From: Deltaproteobacteria bacterium
GTDB taxonomy: Bacteria; Myxococcota_A; Polyangia; DRWM01; JAAZOP01
DNA length: 62,006 nt
Assembly (NCBI GenBank): GCA_016218815.1
Contig: JACRCX010000031.1
Coordinates: 1 to 62,006, forward strand
Direction of reading: 5' to 3'
Shown piece after piece: positions 28,311 through 40,878 of the stretch. Numbering within the stretch: the first letter of the stretch is position 1; the number at the start of each line of letters is the position of its first letter. The notes under the pieces are model-generated. The model saw only the letters and a list, made by a program, of their open reading frames with translations. It had not been told where the DNA came from and made no database searches. The position numbers were made by a program, and so were the translations under genes.

Positions 28311-28486
28311 CCCCGCTCCGTCCTCCGGGAAGTGTACGAGCGAGTACGGAAGGACGCAATCCCGGCAAGTTCGGTTGCCGGCGCATGCCCGGGCATGCCC
28401 CTTCGCCCTTTCGAGCGGGGGTGCGCCGGCCGGGCGGGTCGTGGGGGTCGTTGACGACGGCGGGCTCGTTGGATACCGTCCATCCA

Positions 28487-31231
28487 GTGCGGCTGTCGTG
28501 GAACGAGATTCGTGACCGGGCGGTACGGTTCACCGCCCGGTGGGCAGAGGTCCGGAGCGAGCGTACCGAGGCCCAGACGTTCTGGAACGAGTTCTTCGAG
28601 GTGTTCGGGGTTTCCCGCCGCCGGGTGGCGTTGTTCGAGGAGCCGATCCGACGCCGAGATGCCGGTGCGGGTTCCGGCTTCGCGGACCTGCTGTGGAAGG
28701 GGGTCCTGGTCGTCGAGCACAAGTCGCGCGGCTCGGATCTCGACCGGGCAGCGGAACAGGCATTCGACTACTGCCGGGATCTGGACGAGGAGGACCTGCC
28801 GCGCTTCGTCCTGGTCTCCGACTTCGAACGGTTGAGGCTTCGCGAGCTCGAAACGGGCGACGTCCATGAGATCCGGTTGCGGGACTTCCCGCGCGAGGTA
28901 CGGCGTTTCGCCTTCATGGTCGGTCAGTCCGTGCCCGCGCAGCAGCCCGAGAGCCCGGTCAACCTGAAGGCCGCGCAGTTGATGGGGCGATTGCACGACG
29001 CGCTGGCGGCCAACGGCTACACCGGTCATCCGTTGGAACGGTTGTTGGTTCGGCTCATGTTCTGTTTCTTCGCCGACCACACCGGGATCTTCCAGCCGCG
29101 CGGCCATTTCCGGGCGTTCGTCCAGACGGCCACCCGGCCGGACGGGAGCGACCTGGGATCGCGTCTGGCGCAGGTGTTCGACGTTCTGGACACGCCGGAG
29201 GACCGCCGGCAGCGCAATCTGGACGAGGATCTTGCCGCGTTGCCCTACGTCGATGGTCTGCTGTTTGCGGAGCAGATAAAGCAGGCGGCTTTCGACCGGC
29301 GGACGCGCGAACTGCTGCTGGACTGCTGCGGGTTCGACTGGAGCGTCGTTTCGCCGGCGGTGTTCGGCGCGATGTTCCAGGCGGTGATGGATCGGGAGAA
29401 GCGTCGCAACCTGGGTGCGCACTACACGTCCGAGGCGAACATCCTCAAGACGATCGGACCGTTGATCCTCGACGAACTGCGTGCCGACTTCCGCGCCAAG
29501 CGATCCAACCTCCGAGGCCTGGAGCGGCTGCTCGGCCGCATCGCGCGGTTGCGGATCGTCGATCCGGCCTGCGGCTGCGGCAACTTCCTGGTCGTCGCCT
29601 ACCGTGAGCTTCGCCGGCTGGAACTGGACATCCGGAAGGAGATCGCGCGGCTGCGACGAGGGGGGCTGCAGCGTTGGCTGGACATCGATTGGGACAAGGG
29701 CATCGACGTGGACGCCATGTGCGGCATCGAGATCGAAGAATTTCCCGCTCGCATCGCCGAAACCGCGCTCTGGCTGGTCGACCACCAGATGAACCTGGAG
29801 GTATCCGCGACGATCGGCGAGTACTACGCGCGCCTTCCCTTGCGCAAGGCGCCGAGCATCCACAACCGTAACGCGCTTGAGCTCGACTGGTCGAGCATCG
29901 CGGGGGAACGTCCCTTCGATTTCATCCTCGGCAATCCGCCATTCGTCGGGAAGAAGCGGCGCAGTCCGGCCCAAGCGCGCGACATGGAGACCGTTTGTGT
30001 CAGCATCGGCCTCTCCGGCGAGTTGGACTACGTCTGCTGCTGGTACGTGAAGGCGGCGGATTACCTCGCGCGGAATCCCGCCACGCGCTGCGCGTTCGTA
30101 TCCACGAATTCAATCACTCAAGGTGAGCAGGTCGGCATCTTGTGGCCGGCGCTTCGCGCGCGCGGCGTCCGGATCCCGTTCGCCCATCGCACGTTCCGTT
30201 GGGACAACCAGGCGCCGGGAACCGCACACGTCCACGTGGTGATCATCGGATTGGCCGGCCATCCGCCGGCGGCCTGCCGCTTGTTCGACTATGAGAACCC
30301 GACGGGGGAGCCCACGGAGGTCAAGGCGCGGCGCATCAATCCGTACCTCGTCGACGCGGAGGACGTGTTCGTTGCAGCGCGGCGGGAACCGCTGTGCGCC
30401 GACGCACCGCGGGCGGTTTTCGGCAGCATGCCCAACGACGGCGGCCATCTGCTTCTGAGCGGCGAAGAACGGACCGAGTTGCTTCGGGCGGAACCGGCGG
30501 CGATGCCGCTGCTGCGCCGGTTCGTCGGTGCGAGGGAGGCGATCGGCGGCAACGACCGCTGGTGTCTCTGGTTGGCGGATGTCGAGCCGGCGGAGCTTCG
30601 CTCGCTGTCCCTGGTCCGCCAGCGAATCGCGCGCGTGCGAGACTACCGTCTGCACAGCGAACGCCCCGCGACGAGCAGGCTCGCCGAAGTGCCGCACCTG
30701 TTCGGCGAAAACCGGCAGCCCACGAGGTCCTACATCGCGATTCCCCGGCATTCGTCCGAGTTGCGCCGGTACCTCCCGTTGCAGTACCTCCCGCCGGACG
30801 TGATCGCCGGAGATGCCTGCTGCGTCGTGGAATCCGACGAGCTGTTCCACTTCGGTGTGCTGTCGTCCGCAATGCACATGGCGTGGGTGCGCCACGTCGC
30901 CGGGCGGATCAAGAGCGATCTGCGGTATTCCAACGAGATCGTCTACAACAATTTCCCCTGGCCCCGGCGAGTTGTATCCGGGCACCTGATGGCGGTCCGG
31001 CGAGCGGCGAAGGCGGTGCTGGCAACGCGGCAGCGGGAGGGCCACCCTTCGCTCGCCGCGCTGTACGATCCCTTCGCCATGCCGCGGGAACTTGTGACGG
31101 CGCATCGGACGCTCGACCGCGCCGTCGATCGCTATTACGCGCGCCGGGGGTTTCGCAGCGACCTGGATCGGGTGCGCTTCCTCTTCGGCGAGTACGCCGC
31201 GCTCGCGACCTCGCCCTCCAATTCCAGGTAG
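28487..31231 (+). CDS. MmeI-like Type IIL restriction-modification enzyme
   Basis: 914 aa. GTG 28487 is chosen because it gives MRLSWNEIRDRA, aligning with the known MmeI start; TTG 28469 is an alternative. One polypeptide should both cut and methylate DNA. Residues 60-80 hold a PD-(D/E)XK nuclease site (Asp67, Glu77, Lys79 in FADLLWKGVLVVEHKSRG), as in MmeI. A helical connector follows, then an N6-adenine methyltransferase domain with motif I DPACGCGNF (Asp359) and motif IV NPPF (Asn483), GAHYTSEANILK and STNSITQGEQVG. The target-recognition domain is at about 600-820 and a helical C-terminus ends the protein. No separate methylase or specificity subunit lies nearby, as expected for Type IIL. 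All catalytic motifs look intact. Confidence 0.93.
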   Translation: MRLSWNEIRDRAVRFTARWAEVRSERTEAQTFWNEFFEVFGVSRRRVALFEEPIRRRDAGAGSGFADLLWKGVLVVEHKSRGSDLDRAAEQAFDYCRDLDEEDLPRFVLVSDFERLRLRELETGDVHEIRLRDFPREVRRFAFMVGQSVPAQQPESPVNLKAAQLMGRLHDALAANGYTGHPLERLLVRLMFCFFADHTGIFQPRGHFRAFVQTATRPDGSDLGSRLAQVFDVLDTPEDRRQRNLDEDLAALPYVDGLLFAEQIKQAAFDRRTRELLLDCCGFDWSVVSPAVFGAMFQAVMDREKRRNLGAHYTSEANILKTIGPLILDELRADFRAKRSNLRGLERLLGRIARLRIVDPACGCGNFLVVAYRELRRLELDIRKEIARLRRGGLQRWLDIDWDKGIDVDAMCGIEIEEFPARIAETALWLVDHQMNLEVSATIGEYYARLPLRKAPSIHNRNALELDWSSIAGERPFDFILGNPPFVGKKRRSPAQARDMETVCVSIGLSGELDYVCCWYVKAADYLARNPATRCAFVSTNSITQGEQVGILWPALRARGVRIPFAHRTFRWDNQAPGTAHVHVVIIGLAGHPPAACRLFDYENPTGEPTEVKARRINPYLVDAEDVFVAARREPLCADAPRAVFGSMPNDGGHLLLSGEERTELLRAEPAAMPLLRRFVGAREAIGGNDRWCLWLADVEPAELRSLSLVRQRIARVRDYRLHSERPATSRLAEVPHLFGENRQPTRSYIAIPRHSSELRRYLPLQYLPPDVIAGDACCVVESDELFHFGVLSSAMHMAWVRHVAGRIKSDLRYSNEIVYNNFPWPRRVVSGHLMAVRRAAKAVLATRQREGHPSLAALYDPFAMPRELVTAHRTLDRAVDRYYARRGFRSDLDRVRFLFGEYAALATSPSNSR

Positions 31232-31239
31232 CGACCGGA

Positions 31240-31917
31240 TCACACGCCGCGCCACCGCCGGTAGTCGGGATCGTCGAGGCCCAGGACGTCGAGGACCTTG
31301 CCCACGGTCTGGTCGACCAGGTCGGCGACGGAGCGCGGGCGGGCGTAGAAGGCGGGGACGGGGGGAAGGATCACGGCGCCGGCCTGCGCCGCCTCGAGCA
31401 TGCAGCGCAGGTGGCCGACGTGCAGCGGCGTCTCGCGGACCAGCAGCACCAGCGGGCGGCGCTCCTTGAGGGTCACGTCGGCGGCGCGGGACACGAGGTC
31501 CGCGGCGTGGCAGCCGGCGACGGCGGCGAGGGTCTTGATCGAGCAGGGGGCGATCGCCATCCCGGAGGTGCGGAACGAGCCGCTGGCGATCGGCGCCGCC
31601 AGCTCGCCGGGATCCCAGCAGCGGTCCGCCAGCTTCCGGATGCGCGCCGGCGTCCAGTCGGTCTCCAGCGCGATGACCTTCTCCGCGTTGCGCGAGATGA
31701 CCAGGTGCGTCTCGATCGCGGGGAAGGCGCGCAGCCGCTGGAGCAGGCGGATGCCGTAGATCGAGCCCGAGGCGCCGGTGAGGGCGACGATCAGGGGGAG
31801 TTTTTGGTTTTTGGTTTTTGGTTTTTGGTTTTTGGTTTCCGGACCCGGACTTGCCGCTGCCGGGAACTGCCGCTGGTGGCTCCGGGATCGTGGCTTGCGG
31901 TTCGTGGCGGGGGACAA
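31240..31917 (-). CDS. ubiX: Flavin prenyltransferase UbiX (prenyl-FMN supplier)
   Basis: 225 aa if started at TTG 31917, which has AGGA eight bases upstream (overlapping the kinase stop); no ATG or GTG precedes the conserved core. UbiX attaches dimethylallyl from DMAP to FMN, making the cofactor of UbiD enzymes. The core reads LTGASGSIYGIRLL, SRNAEKV, APCSIKTLA, RAADVTLKERRPLVLL, RETPLHVGHL and PPVPAFYARP. The first 40 residues are an extension encoded partly by a TTTTTGG repeat (KTKNQK peptide repeats) and absent from typical UbiX. It is the last gene of the operon that includes a UbiD-family decarboxylase, which supports a direct cofactor-supply role. Confidence 0.92.
   Translation of the reverse strand: MSPATNRKPRSRSHQRQFPAAASPGPETKNQKPKTKNQKLPLIVALTGASGSIYGIRLLQRLRAFPAIETHLVISRNAEKVIALETDWTPARIRKLADRCWDPGELAAPIASGSFRTSGMAIAPCSIKTLAAVAGCHAADLVSRAADVTLKERRPLVLLVRETPLHVGHLRCMLEAAQAGAVILPPVPAFYARPRSVADLVDQTVGKVLDVLGLDDPDYRRWRGV
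31801..31842 (+). repeat. perfect heptamer array (TTTTTGG)5 within the ubiX 5' coding region
   Basis: Five perfect TTTTTGG units plus TTTCCGG. On the coding (minus) strand it reads as KTKNQK-type repeats in the UbiX N-terminal extension. It is strikingly AT-rich for its surroundings. Confidence 0.85.
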
Positions 31918-31927
31918 CGTGAGAATC

Positions 31928-32716
31928 CTACCAGGAGACGAGCGTGCCGACGGGTTTGGCGCGCAGGGCGTCGCGCAGGCGGTCCGGGACGTTGGCGTCG
32001 ATGATGCGGCCGCGCACCCCGCGCCGGGCCCAGCGCACCAGCTCGCCGACCTTGGTCAGCATGCCCCCCGTGACGTCGATCGCCGCGGAACGGCGCAGAG
32101 CGCGGCGGACCAGCGGCCAGGTCTTGCGGCTGACCAGCGGAAACGCCGCCGCCTCGGGGTCCGCGTGCGGGTCCGCGTCGTACACGCCGTTGACGTCGGT
32201 CGCGTGGACGACGAAGTCGAGGCCGAGCTTGTGCGCGATGTAGGGGGCGAGAACGTCGCCGGAGAGGATCGAGCACCCCTGGGCCGTGTCCCAGGCGGGC
32301 GTGCCGTACAGGACCGGGATCATGCCGGCCTCGAGCAGCCCGCGCAGGACGGTGAGGTCGAGCCGACGCAGCCGGCCGGCGGACATCACGGCGATCGCCG
32401 ATGCCTGCAACGGCACCGCGGGGAGACCGGCGCGCCCCAGCGTGGCGGCGATCTCGACGTTGAGCACGTTCTGCCAGCACTGCGTCTCGGCCCAGGCCAG
32501 CCGCCCGCGCAGATCGCGAACCCCCTTGTCAATCCCGGTGCGGGCGACGATCGGGTGACCGAAGCTCCCCGCGCCGTGGACCACGACGAGCTGGTCGGGA
32601 TGCACCGCGGCAATCTCCCGCGCCAGGCGCGTCAGCGCCGAAGAACGCACCTTCGGGTATTCCGCCGAGCGGTCGGTGATCACCGAACCGCCCAGCTTCA
32701 GCAGCACTCTACTCAC
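31928..32716 (-). CDS. Isopentenyl phosphate kinase
   Basis: 262 aa from GTG 32716, overlapping the end of the upstream AcnX small-subunit gene by eight bases (GTGAGTAG). It is an amino-acid-kinase-fold enzyme that phosphorylates isopentenyl phosphate to IPP. Landmarks match archaeal IPKs: LLKLGGSVITDR, VVHGAGSFGHPIVA with the catalytic His of HGAGSFGH, SGDVLAPYIAHKLG, VVHATDVNGVYDADP and IDVTGGMLTKV. Acetylglutamate kinase, UMP kinase and glutamate 5-kinase lack this HGAGSFGHP segment. IPK is uncommon in bacteria; its place between phosphomevalonate-dehydratase and UbiX genes fits the archaeal-type mevalonate pathway. Confidence 0.9.
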   Translation of the reverse strand: MSRVLLKLGGSVITDRSAEYPKVRSSALTRLAREIAAVHPDQLVVVHGAGSFGHPIVARTGIDKGVRDLRGRLAWAETQCWQNVLNVEIAATLGRAGLPAVPLQASAIAVMSAGRLRRLDLTVLRGLLEAGMIPVLYGTPAWDTAQGCSILSGDVLAPYIAHKLGLDFVVHATDVNGVYDADPHADPEAAAFPLVSRKTWPLVRRALRRSAAIDVTGGMLTKVGELVRWARRGVRGRIIDANVPDRLRDALRAKPVGTLVSW

Positions 32717-33095
32717 CGATCACGACCTCCTCCCCCCGCACCGAAACCACGACGCCATCCCCGATCCCCGACGGATCCAGGCGGTCGACACAGGGAATGT
32801 CCCCCAGAATGGCCCCGACCGCAACCACCGTGTCGCACGTCCCGCACAGGATCGCCGCCGGCGCCGTTCCCTGCTTCGCCATCCGGTACAGGACGTACGA
32901 CCCCACCGTGGAGCCCTTCCCCGTCGGCATCACCAGCACCCGACCCGCCAGCGACCGCCCCTCCAGCGGGTGCCCCTTCTCGATCACCTTCCCCGTGTCC
33001 GGGTCGACCCCCCCGTAGAACGAAATCGCCGCGGAGCTGACCAACGCCACTCCCCGCGCTTCGCCTCCCCGGATGACCCGTCCCCGCACGATCAT
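32709..33095 (-). CDS. Aconitase X swivel domain / phosphomevalonate dehydratase small subunit
   Basis: 128 aa. The DUF126/AcnX-swivel signature is clear: ISFYGGVDPDTGKVIEKGHP, LAGRVLVMPTGKGSTVGSYV and DPSGIGDGVVVSV. In archaea this small subunit joins the AcnX catalytic subunit to dehydrate mevalonate 5-phosphate to trans-anhydromevalonate 5-phosphate. The stop overlaps the IPK start. A 162-nt gap full of heptameric repeats separates it from the large-subunit gene, the only sizeable gap in the operon. A different AcnX substrate (for example hydroxyproline-pathway cis-4-hydroxyproline) is possible for the family but does not fit the neighbours. Confidence 0.9.
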   Translation of the reverse strand: MIVRGRVIRGGEARGVALVSSAAISFYGGVDPDTGKVIEKGHPLEGRSLAGRVLVMPTGKGSTVGSYVLYRMAKQGTAPAAILCGTCDTVVAVGAILGDIPCVDRLDPSGIGDGVVVSVRGEEVVIGE

Positions 33096-33120
33096 CAGCC
33101 CTTCTCCGCCTCCCCCCTCG

Positions 33121-33264
33121 TTCCCCGTTCCCCGTTCCCCGTTCCGTGTCCCGTGTTCCTAGTTCCTAGTCCCTAGTTCCTTGTTCCCATCCCCCATTCC
33201 GTGTTCCGTGTCCCCGGTTCCTGGTTTCTGGTTCCTACTCCCCGTTCCCCATTCCCCCTACCCC
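33121..33264. repeat. long heptameric short tandem repeat array (TTCCCCG, TTCCTAG, TTCCTGG variants)
   Basis: About twenty 7-nt units keep register across 144 nt with one 6-nt slip near 33202. Units drift from TTCCCCG through TTCCTAG to TTCCTGG and TCCCCAT. The array fills the gap between the two AcnX genes and runs into the stop codon of the large-subunit gene (33258-33260). Confidence 0.85.
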
Positions 33265-34457
33265 AACGCCGCCTCGACGCACTCCTCCAACGTCGCCAGC
33301 CGCACCTTCATCGCATTCGGCCCCCGCGCATAGAAACACCCCTTCGCGCTGTCCGTCACCGCCGAGCGGAACCGTCCCGCCAGCGGCGCCACGACGAAGC
33401 ACGTGTCGGCCACGACCAGCCCGCCGCTCGCCTCGATCGCGGCGACCAGTCCTTCGCGCGCGGCCTGCTCCCGCACCGCGCGCGAGGTCGCGACCCACAG
33501 CGTGCGCCGCACCGGCCGGCCGCCCAGCAGCCCGGCCACGCGCCGCAGCGTCGGAAGCGAGGCGTGCGGGCAGCCGACGAACACGAGCTCCGGCTCGGCC
33601 CCGTCGTCCAGCGAGGCGAACGCCTCGTCGATCTCCCGCGGGCCGACCGCCGCCCCGTCCGCCGGCCGCGGATACCGCCCGGCCTCCGGCGTCACGCCGG
33701 CGACGTGGAAAATCGACGGACCGCCGAACGTGGGCAGCGCCGCCGCAAGCGCCATGAGGTGCTCCTCGGCCGGCGCACCGGCACTCCCCGGCGCCTCGCC
33801 GCGCAGCTCGACGAGCGGCACCCGGCCGGGGGCGAGCCTGCCGAGCGCGACGCCCAGCGCTCCCCAGTGGGCGGCGGAGGGAAGCACGGTCTCCACGCGC
33901 ACGAGGACCTGGGGCGCCCGCGGCTCGTCCAGGTGCAGGCCGTACTCGGGCGTGCGCCCGCAGAGCGCGGCCGCCAGCGCCGACGGCCCGCCCTCGCGGT
34001 TCGTGCGGGCGCCGAGCACCGAGTTGGCGAAGGTGACGGCGGAGGACTCGGACCAGGCGACGTGCTCCCCCGGCGCGGGACGGTTGCCGGCGAAGTACGG
34101 CGTGCAGGTGCACGACGGCACGACGCCCATCCGCTCGTACGCGCGCACGATGCGGAGTTGCCGGTCGGCGAATTCTTGCGGGATGCCCATCGCGCGCCAG
34201 GCCACCAGGTCCATGCCGGCCGGGTTGAGGGTCGAGGGGCAGGCGACCCGCCCGTCCCGCGCCCAGTCCTCGAGCAGCTCCAGGCCCGCGTCGCCGAGGT
34301 TGGCGTACGAGACGCCGGAGATCTGCGCCGAGCGGACGGGGATGAGGCGTCCGGCGTCGTAGATCGTGCCCAGGGCGACGAGGATCTCCATCGACTTGCG
34401 GGCGGCGTCGCCGCCGGCGCCGTCGAGCAGGCGGCGAGCGTCGTCGTCCAGGTGCAC
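33258..34457 (-). CDS. Aconitase X catalytic subunit / phosphomevalonate dehydratase large subunit
   Basis: 399 aa from GTG 34457, two bases after the stop of the UbiD-family gene. The AcnX (DUF521) signature is very strong: RSAQISGVSYANLG, CPSTLNPAGMDLVAW, GVVPSCTCTPYFAGN, HVAWSESSAVTFANSVLG, ARTNREGGPSALAAAL and YGLHLDE. Well-separated cysteines in CTCTPY, VGCPHAS and ADTCFVV are candidate [4Fe-4S] ligands. In the archaeal mevalonate pathway this enzyme removes water from mevalonate 5-phosphate. The frame stays open far upstream without a stop, but homology ends at this GTG. Likely co-translated with the decarboxylase. Confidence 0.92.
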   Translation of the reverse strand: MHLDDDARRLLDGAGGDAARKSMEILVALGTIYDAGRLIPVRSAQISGVSYANLGDAGLELLEDWARDGRVACPSTLNPAGMDLVAWRAMGIPQEFADRQLRIVRAYERMGVVPSCTCTPYFAGNRPAPGEHVAWSESSAVTFANSVLGARTNREGGPSALAAALCGRTPEYGLHLDEPRAPQVLVRVETVLPSAAHWGALGVALGRLAPGRVPLVELRGEAPGSAGAPAEEHLMALAAALPTFGGPSIFHVAGVTPEAGRYPRPADGAAVGPREIDEAFASLDDGAEPELVFVGCPHASLPTLRRVAGLLGGRPVRRTLWVATSRAVREQAAREGLVAAIEASGGLVVADTCFVVAPLAGRFRSAVTDSAKGCFYARGPNAMKVRLATLEECVEAALG

Positions 34458-34459
34458 GG

Positions 34460-35746
34460 CTACACCGGTCCGGGGACGACGCGCACGAAGTCGCGGCGAG
34501 GCCGGCCGAGCGGGATGGTCGCGTCGAGGATCCACTTGGCGGTGGTCTCGGTGGCGAGCTCGCGGGACGGGTCGAGGCTGGAGCCGCGGGCGCCGGCGAT
34601 GACGAACAGGTCGCGGTCCGGCTGGAAGCGCGTCGCGACGGCCCACTCCACGTCGTCGGGGTTCCACGGGTCGACGTCGTCGTCCACGACGACAACGCGC
34701 TTGAGCGAGGGGTGCGCGGCCAGCGCGGCGAGGCCCGCGTTGCGGCCGTCGCCTTCGGCCCGCTTGCGGATGGACACGACGGCGTGGAGCCAGGAACAGC
34801 CGCCCGTGGTCAGGGCGACGGCGACGACGCCCGGGACGGCGTTGGCGACGATGCGCAGGATGCGCGGCTCCTGGGGGATGCCCATCAGCGCCCGATGCTC
34901 GGCGCCGCCGGGGAGGATCGTGCGGTAGATCCAGTCGTCGCGGTGGTAGAGGCGGTCGACCTCCAGCACCGGCTGGCGGCGGATGCCGTCGTAGGTGCCC
35001 GTGAGGTCGACGAACGGCCCTTCCTGGGCGAGGGCGCCCGTGAACCGACCGCGCAGGACCAGCTCCGTGTGCGCGGGGATGCGGAAGCCGTCGAGGTCGA
35101 CGCAGTCGAGCTTGCCGTGGAGGAGGGCGGAGGCGAGGCGCAGCTCGTCCAGTTCCGGCGGGCCCGACGTGGCGGCGGCCAGCTCGACGGCCGGGTGCAC
35201 CCCGCAGATCACGGCGACCTCGGCCTTGCCGCCGCCTTCGGCGAGCACGGCATGAAGGTGGCGGGGGACGACGCGCACCGAGAGGCGGTTGCGGCCCAGC
35301 AGCATCATGCGGTGGAAGGAGAGGTTCATGCCCGACCGGGTGCGGACGATGACGATGGTGCCGGTGAGGAAGCGGCGGCGTTTCTCGGGGTAGAAGCGGA
35401 CGATCGGAACGATGCGTCCGAGGTCGGGCTTCCCGACGACGTGAGCGAGGAACGCGGCGTCCCGGACCGTACGGCACGGACGGGTGGCGTCGAGGGCGGC
35501 GGCGACGGTGCGGACCAGGGCCTCCGGCGAGGTGCCGAGCGTGCGGGCGAGAAGGGCGCGGGAGGCGGCGACGCCGCCCACGATGGGCGTCGCGTAGCCG
35601 CGCACGCGGTCGAAGCGGACGATGCGCTCGCCCGCCTCGTGGAGCCTGCGCGCCAGGGGTTCGGACGGGGGCAGGGACTCCGGGACCCGGTCCAACAGCC
35701 CGGCCCGTTCGGCTTCCTCGAGGTAGGATCGAAGATCCGCGCTCAT
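34460..35746 (-). CDS. UbiD-family decarboxylase (candidate anhydromevalonate phosphate decarboxylase)
   Basis: 428 aa from ATG 35746 (MSADLRSYLEEAERAGLLDRV). The family fold is shown by GRFTGALAQEGPFVDLTGTYD, YHRDDWIYRTILPGGAEH, LMGIPQEPRI, SLKRVVVVDDDVDPWNPDDVEWA and GSSLDPS; the Glu-Arg-Glu type catalytic residues should lie within these conserved blocks. UbiD enzymes use prenyl-FMN; the UbiX gene at the end of this operon can supply it. In archaea a UbiD homologue decarboxylates trans-anhydromevalonate phosphate to isopentenyl phosphate. It is the first gene of a five-gene operon and divergent from the FrzS-like gene. An aromatic-acid decarboxylase role is the alternative but lacks contextual support. 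Confidence 0.9.
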   Translation of the reverse strand: MSADLRSYLEEAERAGLLDRVPESLPPSEPLARRLHEAGERIVRFDRVRGYATPIVGGVAASRALLARTLGTSPEALVRTVAAALDATRPCRTVRDAAFLAHVVGKPDLGRIVPIVRFYPEKRRRFLTGTIVIVRTRSGMNLSFHRMMLLGRNRLSVRVVPRHLHAVLAEGGGKAEVAVICGVHPAVELAAATSGPPELDELRLASALLHGKLDCVDLDGFRIPAHTELVLRGRFTGALAQEGPFVDLTGTYDGIRRQPVLEVDRLYHRDDWIYRTILPGGAEHRALMGIPQEPRILRIVANAVPGVVAVALTTGGCSWLHAVVSIRKRAEGDGRNAGLAALAAHPSLKRVVVVDDDVDPWNPDDVEWAVATRFQPDRDLFVIAGARGSSLDPSRELATETTAKWILDATIPLGRPRRDFVRVVPGPV

Positions 35747-39888: not shown

Positions 39889-40878
39889 CTAGACGTGCAG
39901 CTCGACCACGTCCTTGTCGTGCAGCGCGTAGTCCGCGATGACGCGCTGGCCGTCGAAGGTGTGCGCGCCCCAGACACGCGCGAACTTGAGCGTCTGGGCC
40001 AGGTCCTTGTGGATGCGCTCGGCCAGCATCCCCACCGTCGCACCGCCCCGCAGGACGAACGGCGCGTTCAGGTCGGGCGGCTTGCCGGGCTGCTTGGCGT
40101 ACACGCGCAGCAGCCGGCAAACCTCGAAGATGTGGGCCGGAATCGCAGCCACGGCGTCGCCGGTAGCAGCCGAAACGGGCAGCAGCGGCAGGTCGCCTTC
40201 GTACAGCTCGCGGAACGCGCCGAGGTTGTCGCGGGCGCCCGGGACGTCGAGCTTGTTGCCGACGAGGGCGGCGCGCTTGGCGCGGGGCCGCAGCTCCTCG
40301 GGCGCGGCGTCGGGGTCGCGGCGCGGGTAGAGCTTGGCCTCCTCCAGCAGCGCGAGCATGTCGTGCAGCTCGGTCAGGGGATCGAGCGACAGGTCGACGA
40401 CGAGGAGCAGGACGTCGGCGTTGCGCGCCTGGCCGATGACCCACGGCTGCGGGCGCTCGGCGCTCAGCGCGGGCAGGTCGACGATCTGGATCGGGACGTC
40501 CTCGTGGTGCGCGATGCCCGAGCACGGGATCTGCGTCGTGAACGGGTACGGCGCGACCTCGGGCTGCGCCTTGGACAGCGCGCGCAGCAGGCTGGACTTC
40601 CCGGCGTTGGGCGGGCCAAGCAGCATCGCCATCGCCTCGGTCTGGCGGTCCACCGTGATCAGGGCCGACTTTCCGCCGCCGGCCTTCGGACCCTTGTCCC
40701 CTTCCTCGCGCAGGCGCGCGATGCGGGTCTTGAGGTCCGCCTGCATCTTCTCGGTCCCCTTGTGCTTGGGGATCCAGGAGTACATGTCCTCCAGGGCGCG
40801 CAGGCGCTCCTCGAAGGTCGTGGCCTTCCTGTACCGGCCTTCGGCTTCCTTGTACTCCGGGGACAGATTCGCCGTCAT
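39889..40878 (-). CDS. DRG/Obg-like GTPase with C-terminal TGS domain
   Basis: 329 aa from ATG 40878. A helical N-terminus (IPKHKGTEKMQADLKTRIAR) resembles the helix-turn-helix arm of DRG GTPases. G-motifs: GPPNAGKSSLL (G1), a conserved Thr in PYPFTTQIP (G2), DLPAL (G3) and NKLD (G4). A TGS domain (GGATVGMLAERIHKDLAQTL to VVELHV) closes the protein. This is the architecture of archaeal/eukaryotic DRG proteins and of some bacterial relatives that bind ribosomes. It sits between a TerB-like gene and the Zn-ribbon protein on the same strand with 10-26-nt gaps. Role in translation is inferred from the family only. Confidence 0.85.
   Translation of the reverse strand: MTANLSPEYKEAEGRYRKATTFEERLRALEDMYSWIPKHKGTEKMQADLKTRIARLREEGDKGPKAGGGKSALITVDRQTEAMAMLLGPPNAGKSSLLRALSKAQPEVAPYPFTTQIPCSGIAHHEDVPIQIVDLPALSAERPQPWVIGQARNADVLLLVVDLSLDPLTELHDMLALLEEAKLYPRRDPDAAPEELRPRAKRAALVGNKLDVPGARDNLGAFRELYEGDLPLLPVSAATGDAVAAIPAHIFEVCRLLRVYAKQPGKPPDLNAPFVLRGGATVGMLAERIHKDLAQTLKFARVWGAHTFDGQRVIADYALHDKDVVELHV

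What the first reader, a model, noticed from the sequence alone, without database searches (positions are those of the whole stretch)
31240..35746. Five-gene operon for the lower archaeal-type mevalonate pathway in a bacterium
On one strand and mostly overlapping or nearly touching lie a UbiD-family decarboxylase, AcnX large subunit, AcnX small subunit, isopentenyl phosphate kinase and UbiX. In archaea such as Aeropyrum pernix, AcnX subunits act as phosphomevalonate dehydratase, the UbiD homologue (with prenyl-FMN from UbiX) decarboxylates anhydromevalonate phosphate to isopentenyl phosphate, and IPK makes IPP. All family signatures are readable here. Finding them as one operon in a Myxococcota-like genome suggests transfer of, or an ancient bacterial version of, this pathway. 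UbiX also uses DMAP, so cofactor synthesis and IPK draw on related monophosphates.
Basis: partly seen in the sequence, partly recalled or inferred. Interest (0 to 1): 0.93.

Follow-up and report, generated by a model that had tools for sequence, protein, structure and literature searches.

The report
Archaeal-style isoprenoid operon in a bacterium
A bacterium, likely of the phylum Myxococcota, carries five adjacent genes of the families that archaea use to turn phosphomevalonate into the isoprenoid building block IPP, and searches of its incomplete genome found no key gene of the two usual bacterial routes, so it likely makes isoprenoids the archaeal way.

Summary
Confirmed. On the minus strand of window 31240-35746 lie UbiD, AcnX large, AcnX small, isopentenyl phosphate kinase (IPK) and UbiX. 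AcnX large keeps all 13 residues that hold the Fe-S cluster and mevalonate 5-phosphate in the Thermococcus enzyme. In trees, AcnX and UbiD fall among archaeal sequences. The rest of the genome (83% complete) holds HMG-CoA reductase, mevalonate kinase, type 2 IPP isomerase and an HMG-CoA synthase-like gene; no diphosphomevalonate decarboxylase, Dxr or IspH was found. Of 59 genomes of the class, the 12 with AcnX are the 12 with IPK, and all 12 have this UbiD. Flanking genes are shared by four species, so binning error is unlikely. A bacterium with this pathway is not a first: a 2024 paper on a Chloroflexota member is cited in print (I saw its title only). Further here: another phylum, at least two acquisitions within it, apparent displacement of the classical pathway in nine genomes, one genome with both routes on one contig, and relatives whose large and small AcnX are fused, swivel domain last. 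No activity has been tested.

The parts
34460..35746 (-). UbiD-family decarboxylase, likely anhydromevalonate phosphate decarboxylase (AMPD)
   Evidence: PF01977, PF20696, PF20695; TIGR00148 309 bits; Arg146 and EGPFVD 242-247; inside the archaeal UbiD group with bacterial UbiDs as outgroup
33258..34457 (-). AcnX large subunit, likely phosphomevalonate dehydratase large subunit
   Evidence: PF04412 455 bits; 7cnr 303 bits against 226 or less for type I; 13 of 13 TkAcnX large-subunit site residues identical; tree
33096..33257 (-). 162-nt spacer between AcnX large and small, mostly GTTCCTA/CGTTCCC-type repeats (array called at 33115-33255)
   Evidence: spacing
32709..33095 (-). AcnX small (swivel) subunit
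   Evidence: PF01989 120 bits; best PDB match 7cnr_B, 116 bits, GKGST segment identical
31928..32716 (-). isopentenyl phosphate kinase
   Evidence: NF040647 200 bits, cut-off 120; best PDB match 3ll9; HGAGSFGH at residues 47-54
31240..31917 (-). UbiX flavin prenyltransferase (domain from residue 42; N-terminal extension partly repeat-encoded), likely supplies prenyl-FMN to UbiD
   Evidence: TIGR00421 240 bits, PRK06029 241 bits, both over cut-off; GTTTTTG x5.6 at 31800-31838

Best explanation
The five genes are of the families of the archaeal-type lower mevalonate pathway and likely make IPP for this bacterium: AcnX large plus small are predicted to dehydrate mevalonate 5-phosphate to trans-anhydromevalonate phosphate, UbiD with prenyl-FMN from UbiX would decarboxylate it to isopentenyl phosphate, and IPK would phosphorylate that to IPP. 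Mevalonate 5-phosphate would come from an HMG-CoA synthase-like enzyme, HMG-CoA reductase and mevalonate kinase encoded elsewhere in the genome, and a type 2 isomerase and polyprenyl synthase beside the last two would use the IPP. Shown here: the genes, their order, the conserved ligand residues, the gene complement and the tree positions. Inferred: every catalytic step, the cofactors, and acquisition from archaea (directly or through another bacterium).
For: Family matches. All 13 large-subunit residues that bind the cluster or MVA5P in TkAcnX (PMC8184944) are identical in the window; the GKGST segment of the small subunit is identical. AcnX over cut-off is in 12 of 59 class genomes; IPK is over cut-off in 10 of these and just under it in the other two, and over cut-off in none of the remaining 47; all 12 have a UbiD like the window's. 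Nine of the 12 have mevalonate kinase as the only mevalonate-pathway GHMP kinase found. Own genome: HMGR and MVK, type 2 IDI, polyprenyl synthase and HMGS-like, no DPMD, no Dxr, no IspH. Among 104 class genomes (hand count of the listing), 4 of 4 with archaeal-type AcnX lack DPMD, against 3 of 100 others (Fisher p 7.6e-6; not corrected for kinship). Gene order recurs, with HMGR-MVK-UbiD-AcnXL-AcnXS-IPK in one stretch in G056. Flanks shared with G001, G002 and G003 argue against contamination.
Against: No enzyme, metabolite or mutant was tested. The genome is 83% complete, so an absent gene may be unassembled; phosphomevalonate kinase was sought only through PF00288. G004 (MVK, DPMD) and G005 (MVK, DPMD, PMK-like) keep classical genes beside the archaeal ones, and G026 has Dxr, IspE and IspH, so the module need not be the sole route. 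AcnX and UbiD of the window clade have different nearest archaeal groups, against a simple one-step operon transfer. G004's IPK has NGAGSFAH in place of HGAGSFGH. Small-subunit numbering in the PDB chain differs by one from the paper. Desulfosporosinus and Synergistaceae have AcnX, UbiD and UbiX near each other without IPK in the locus, so AcnX plus UbiD alone is not diagnostic.
Confidence: 0.9

Rival explanations
1. The AcnX and UbiD/UbiX genes serve a catabolic route (hydroxyproline-like or other hydroxy-acid dehydration followed by decarboxylation) and IPK is a neighbour by chance or salvages isopentenyl phosphate.
For: AcnX of types I and IIa act on cis-3-hydroxyproline (PMC10040528, PMC8184944, passages and one section read). 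AcnX, UbiD and UbiX also lie near each other in Desulfosporosinus L085 and Synergistaceae L089 without IPK in the locus.
Against: C3LHyp dehydratase model scored 278 of 700; type I Cys-x-Cys absent and phosphate-contact Asn53 present, while L085 and L089 have Val there. IPK and AcnX share the same 12 of 59 genomes. Nine carriers would then have no complete isoprenoid route among the genes found.
Confidence: 0.04
2. IPP is made by the haloarchaeal/Chloroflexi alternative route (mevalonate phosphate decarboxylase of the GHMP family plus IPK), or by the classical route with genes missing from the assembly; the AcnX/UbiD genes are accessory.
For: Genome 83% complete; G004 and G005 carry DPMD beside the archaeal genes; MPD plus IPK is shown in Roseiflexus (PMC3857490, passages).
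Against: No TIGR01240 match in G000, G003 (99% complete), G010 (92%) or G018 (97%); the only mevalonate-pathway GHMP kinase found in nine carriers is MVK.
Confidence: 0.05
3. Archaeal DNA binned or assembled into a bacterial MAG by mistake.
For: The three carriers whose titles I saw (G001, G002, a Polyangiaceae) are MAGs.
Against: GC of 0.69-0.73 over the cluster lies within the window's range of 0.66-0.76. purB and purC on one side and a response-regulator and a GTPase gene on the other flank the cluster in G001, G002 and the two G003 contigs; G001 and G002 have different project titles.
Confidence: 0.01

Closest known systems
Archaeal modified mevalonate pathway of Aeropyrum pernix (phosphomevalonate dehydratase, anhydromevalonate phosphate decarboxylase, IPK)
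   Same: Same gene families; same ligand residues in AcnX; AcnX and UbiD fall among archaeal homologues.
   Different: In a bacterium; one compact cluster; HMGR matches the TIGR00532 (degradative, NAD) model. PMC10040528 calls the pathway unique to archaea (passages).
Archaeal mevalonate pathway in Candidatus Promineifilum breve, Chloroflexota (Kanno et al. 2024, title seen only in the reference list of PMC13001223)
   Same: Archaeal-type lower pathway in a bacterium; the better-scoring Anaerolineae AcnX hits are 44-63% identical to the window's.
   Different: Other phylum; the window AcnX clade is separate from the two large Anaerolineae clades. One Anaerolineae fragment (L100) is the closest non-Myxococcota sequence by identity (62% over 190 aa) and branches near, with weak support.
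Alternative mevalonate pathway of Roseiflexus castenholzii (MPD plus IPK; PMC3857490)
   Same: Ends with IPK in a bacterium.
   Different: Decarboxylates mevalonate 5-phosphate with a GHMP-family enzyme; none found here.
Classical mevalonate pathway of other genomes of this class (for example G044: MVK by its sequence only, DPMD by model, PMK-like under its cut-off)
   Same: Same upper part and mevalonate kinase.
   Different: PMK and DPMD appear replaced by AcnX, UbiD and IPK.

Membership tests
Phosphomevalonate dehydratase (AcnX type IIb) | Separate large (domains 1-3) and small (swivel) subunits | tested here: met
   PF04412 and PF01989 on two genes
Phosphomevalonate dehydratase (AcnX type IIb) | Cluster cysteines Cys110, Cys283, Cys342 and Glu129, Lys361 (TkAcnX numbers) | tested here: met
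   Window Cys118, Cys296, Cys353, Glu137, Lys372
Phosphomevalonate dehydratase (AcnX type IIb) | MVA5P-contact residues Gly48, Val49, Ser50, Asn53, Asn79, Ser130, Ser131, Tyr365 of the large and Thr63 of the small subunit | tested here: met
   All identical for the large subunit; GKGST segment of the small subunit identical, chain numbering off by one
Phosphomevalonate dehydratase (AcnX type IIb) | Groups with archaeal AcnX | tested here: met
   100/100 branch with archaea against two bacterial type II sequences; only two outgroup rows
Phosphomevalonate dehydratase (AcnX type IIb) | Dehydratase activity on mevalonate 5-phosphate | not testable with these tools
   needs enzyme assay
Anhydromevalonate phosphate decarboxylase (UbiD family) | UbiD fold domains and catalytic Arg and EGPFxD segment (catalytic role recalled) | tested here: met
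Anhydromevalonate phosphate decarboxylase (UbiD family) | Groups with archaeal homologues | tested here: met
   (bacterial outgroup of 5 rows of unknown function, joined at 92/84); best PDB match 6h6v, 252 bits
Anhydromevalonate phosphate decarboxylase (UbiD family) | Branches apart from UbiDs of known aromatic-acid function | not tested
   no such sequence was in the tree
Anhydromevalonate phosphate decarboxylase (UbiD family) | Activity on anhydromevalonate phosphate | not testable with these tools
   needs enzyme assay
Isopentenyl phosphate kinase | Over the curated NCBIfam cut-off and IPK histidine signature (mentioned in PMC3857490; its exact position recalled) | tested here: met
   NF040647 200 of 120 bits; HGAGSFGH
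Flavin prenyltransferase UbiX | Over curated cut-offs | tested here: met
   TIGR00421, PRK06029
Archaeal-type mevalonate pathway (whole) | HMGR and MVK present | tested here: met
Archaeal-type mevalonate pathway (whole) | No PMK/DPMD and no MEP pathway in the genome | tested here: met
   genome 83% complete; PMK sought only through PF00288, MEP through Dxr and IspH
[quoted passage not shown]
   278 of 700 bits; Val at the second Cys
Classical mevalonate pathway | Diphosphomevalonate decarboxylase and phosphomevalonate kinase | tested here: not met

The most novel reading that the evidence does not exclude
Myxococcota took up the archaeal lower mevalonate module at least twice. In the window's lineage it displaced the bacteria's own phosphomevalonate kinase and decarboxylase entirely; in the G004/G005 lineage the swap is caught half-way, with classical and archaeal genes side by side on one contig. 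Close relatives went further and fused phosphomevalonate dehydratase into one chain with the swivel domain last, the aconitase order, which the two AcnX papers read here do not describe.
Probability: 0.6. Interest if true: 0.75.

Novelty: new member of a known kind. Interest (0 to 1): 0.62.

Why it matters
Papers whose passages I read describe the anhydromevalonate route as archaeal, with some Chloroflexota as a bacterial exception. A second bacterial phylum, with related genomes that have the classical genes only, both sets, or the archaeal set only, gives a natural series for testing how an essential pathway is swapped and why. The route should save one ATP per IPP compared with the classical one (pathway stoichiometry, recalled), and a [4Fe-4S] dehydratase raises the question of oxygen tolerance. 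The fused dehydratase may be a handier enzyme for isoprenoid engineering.

Tried and rejected
Rejected: hydroxyproline dehydratase (model score 278 of 700; site residues). Rejected: contamination (flanks; GC). Rejected: one single acquisition for all carriers (AU test p 2.7e-6 for AcnX, and 0.0053 for UbiD; the groups were the taxon label, the split into two was seen in the trees first). Not rejected: one origin for the 11 AcnX without G004/G005 (p 0.349). Not supported: Anaerolineae as the immediate donor of the window's AcnX (31 rows); the L100 fragment leaves a Chloroflexota link open.

Led nowhere: donor identification. The window clade's AcnX sits with DPANN/Bathyarchaeia/Thorarchaeota, its UbiD with Euryarchaeota/Thermococcus, and the IPK tree has no outgroup. 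Long branches (family f8, L101) make deep placement unsure.

Rows dropped: all trees left out duplicate loci of the same genes, among them L062 and L063 (G001, G002). The UbiD tree left out L085, L089, L091, L100 as duplicates of other loci, and rows under 80 bits or half coverage (such as L173); UbiDs of G042, G017, G055, G045, G015 came later and were not added. The IPK tree left out the partial G005 gene and has no Anaerolineae rows. The first AcnX tree left out L100 (under half coverage); one search added it and the 30 loci returned of 133 matching genomes. In one search the pattern for the UbiD Arg segment matched in 7 of 12 carriers; the other five were not looked at further.

Literature: I saw listings (one search listed 30 of 54) and opened passages of six papers; none seen reports the route in Myxococcota. 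The library holds open-licence papers only, so this is weak.
Full report
What is there. The minus strand of window 31240-35746 holds five genes in one direction: UbiD (35746-34460), AcnX large (34457-33258), AcnX small (33095-32709), IPK (32716-31928) and UbiX (31917-31240). Spacings are 2 nt, 162 nt, an 8-nt overlap and 10 nt. Pfam and NCBIfam matches are strong for all five; IPK, UbiX and UbiD pass curated NCBIfam cut-offs. The AcnX small subunit scores 152.7 bits on the DUF126 model, just under its cut-off of 163.

The dehydratase. The nearest solved structure of AcnX large is Thermococcus kodakarensis AcnX (7cnr, 303 bits), ahead of the type I hydroxyproline enzymes (226 bits or less). PMC8184944 (passages and one section read) lists the residues that hold the cluster and mevalonate 5-phosphate. 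All 13 in the large subunit are identical in the window (Gly48, Val49, Ser50, Asn53, Asn78, Cys118, Glu137, Ser138, Ser139, Cys296, Cys353, Lys372, Tyr376). The GKGST segment of the small subunit is identical. In the Myxococcota set 12 of 13 sequences show all three cysteines; the 13th (G003) is cut by a contig end. Asn53, which touches the phosphate, is Asn in 11 of 13 Myxococcota and 23 of 40 archaeal sequences (Thr in 14), Ser in G004 and G005, and Val in both bacterial outgroup sequences. NCBI's hydroxyproline dehydratase model gives 278 bits against a cut-off of 700.

The other enzymes. UbiD has Arg146 and an EGPFVD segment at 242. EGPF[VIL]D is present in the cluster's UbiD in all 12 carrier genomes (window plus 11) and in 37 of 41 UbiD rows from loci L064-L101 and L150-L170, a set with duplicates and a few bacterial rows; the Arg pattern matched in 7 of the 12. 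IPK has HGAGSFGH; G004's IPK has NGAGSFAH instead. The catalytic roles of these residues are recalled.

The rest of the pathway in this genome. The genome (7.3 Mb, 161 contigs, 83.4% complete, 3.2% contamination) has one match to PF00288, the GHMP kinase family. It is mevalonate kinase (TIGR00549, 203 of 163 bits) and directly follows HMG-CoA reductase (TIGR00532, 364 bits). Before them lies type 2 IPP isomerase (TIGR02151, 351 bits) and after them a polyprenyl synthase. An HMG-CoA synthase-like gene is on another contig: PF01154 and PF08540 are over cut-off, while TIGR01835 at 337 bits is under 360. No DPMD (TIGR01240), Dxr (PF02670) or IspH (PF02401) was found. The PF00288 search found a homoserine kinase in G001 but none in G000, so it may miss members; for DPMD the TIGR01240 search is the stronger test, and PMK was sought only through PF00288.

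Relatives. Of 59 genomes of the class (own included), 12 have AcnX over cut-off. IPK is over cut-off in 10 of 59 and just under it in two more, one of them cut by a contig end; these 12 are the same 12. A UbiD like the window's (E up to 1e-20) is in 17 of 59: the 12, plus G042, which has only an AcnX fragment below cut-off, and G017, G055, G045 and G015 with weaker matches. Of the 12, nine have MVK as the only mevalonate-pathway GHMP kinase found: eight with a single GHMP match and G001, whose second match is homoserine kinase (three of the nine MVKs score 152-159 against a cut-off of 163). The exceptions are G004 (MVK and DPMD), G005 (MVK, DPMD and a PMK-like kinase, 102 bits against a cut-off of 166) and G026 (MVK plus IspE, IspH and Dxr). 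IspH and Dxr were each found in 3 of 59 genomes, the same three. In a sample of 377 genomes of the phylum, DPMD matches in 256 (248 over cut-off). By my count of the listing, 104 of these are of the class and 97 of them match; the seven without are G000, G003, G010, G018, G288, G346 and G058. The first four are all the class members of the sample with archaeal-type AcnX; a fifth AcnX carrier of the class, G248, has a distant AcnX (29% identity) and DPMD (Fisher p 7.6e-6, without correction for kinship). The other eight carriers were not in that sample.

Gene order. UbiD-AcnXL-AcnXS-IPK runs in one stretch in G000, G001, G002, G056, G010, G049, G018 and G034. In G004 the order is UbiD-AcnXL-AcnXS-UbiX-IPK. 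G003 is split by contig ends. G005 reads MVK-DPMD-PMK-HMGR-UbiD-AcnXL-AcnXS-UbiX up to a contig end, with part of an IPK at another contig's end. G026 has UbiD-AcnXL and AcnXS-IPK on two contigs. G056 has HMGR-MVK directly before the cluster. Several DPANN archaea have UbiX-UbiD-AcnXL-AcnXS with IPK near, some with MVK too, and four Thorarchaeota have MVK-UbiD-AcnXL-AcnXS.

Not contamination. Both, and the two G003 contigs, carry window flanking genes around the cluster (purB and purC on one side, the response-regulator and GTPase genes on the other).

Trees. AcnX large, 55 rows: with two bacterial type II sequences as outgroup, all 13 Myxococcota sequences lie among archaea. The window's group lies with DPANN, Bathyarchaeia and Thorarchaeota (100/98), and G004 plus G005 with a Thermoplasmata sequence (100/99). 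One clade for all 13 is rejected (p 2.7e-6); one clade for the other 11 is not (p 0.349). UbiD, 54 rows: again two groups. The window's lies with Euryarchaeota and Thermococcus (95/94), and G004 plus G005 with DPANN, Thorarchaeota and Thermoplasmata (99/99); one clade is rejected (p 0.0053). The UbiD outgroup is joined at 92/84 only. IPK, 29 rows and no outgroup: G004 lies with Aenigmatarchaeota (100/99), the others elsewhere. AcnX and UbiD of the window thus point to different archaeal relatives, which fits neither a single recent donor nor a simple operon transfer. With 31 Anaerolineae rows added, the window's seven-row clade (98/93) stays apart from both large Anaerolineae clades; the L100 fragment branches near it with weak support. 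AcnX-like genes at E up to 1e-30 are in 133 of 298 Anaerolineae-class genomes, some of them of a distant type (34-41% identity).

Fusion. Eleven of the 120 AcnX matches listed are single chains of 547-587 aa with the large part first and the swivel last; G002's locus reads through from one to the other. The AcnX papers read here describe the swivel first (type I) or separate (type II). AlphaFold2 gives the G002 chain mean pLDDT 85 with a low-confidence linker at 402-446, and its two parts match the large (TM 0.93) and small (TM 0.92) subunits of 7cnr.

Literature. PMC10040528 (passages) calls the pathway unique to archaea. PMC11052028 (passages) treats the archaea-type as archaeal. PMC13001223 (passages) says some Chloroflexota encode an archaeal-type route and cites Kanno et al. 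2024 on Candidatus Promineifilum breve, which I could not open. PMC3857490 (passages) shows another IPK route in Chloroflexi. PMC12872458 (passages) did not bear on this. So the kind is known; this is a new member in another phylum with unusual evolutionary detail.

Verdict. Observation confirmed and interpretation supported; function is inferred, not tested. The finding is less novel than first rated because of the Chloroflexota precedent.

Noticed in passing
L020:6735-8470 (G002); P0128-P0138: AcnX large and small are fused in one chain with the swivel domain at the C-terminus, in 11 of the 120 AcnX matches listed; in the window the two genes are split by a repeat-rich spacer.
   Followed up: partly
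L023 (G005:C209): Classical MVK, DPMD and PMK-like genes sit directly before HMGR-UbiD-AcnXL-AcnXS-UbiX on one contig: both lower pathways in one genome.
   Followed up: partly
G026: L024, L140, L133, L134, L179: Archaeal-type genes and mevalonate kinase together with low-scoring Dxr and IspH and an IspE: two isoprenoid routes, or contamination (4%).
   Followed up: no
window 33115-33255 and 31800-31838: 7-nt-type repeats (GTTCCTA/CGTTCCC and GTTTTTG) fill most of the AcnX spacer and encode part of an N-terminal extension of UbiX.
   Followed up: no
window 28394-31231 (+): MmeI-type fused restriction-modification enzyme next to the cluster; no match to it was found in the G001 locus L019, where the neighbouring genes are kept.
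   Followed up: partly
L085, L089: Desulfosporosinus and Synergistaceae AcnX with UbiD and UbiX nearby but no IPK in the locus, and Val in place of the phosphate-contact Asn53: possibly another AcnX-UbiD pathway of unknown substrate.
   Followed up: no
L191-L220: AcnX-like genes are widespread in the Anaerolineae-class genomes searched (133 of 298); the 30 best fall in two clades among archaeal sequences.
   Followed up: partly
G042:C181:1240-2139: A UbiD like the window's with only a below-cut-off AcnX fragment in the genome: perhaps a 13th carrier broken by assembly.
   Followed up: no
window 39892-40878 (-): Small GTPase with a C-terminal TGS domain that scores far below the Obg and YchF model cut-offs.
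   Followed up: no
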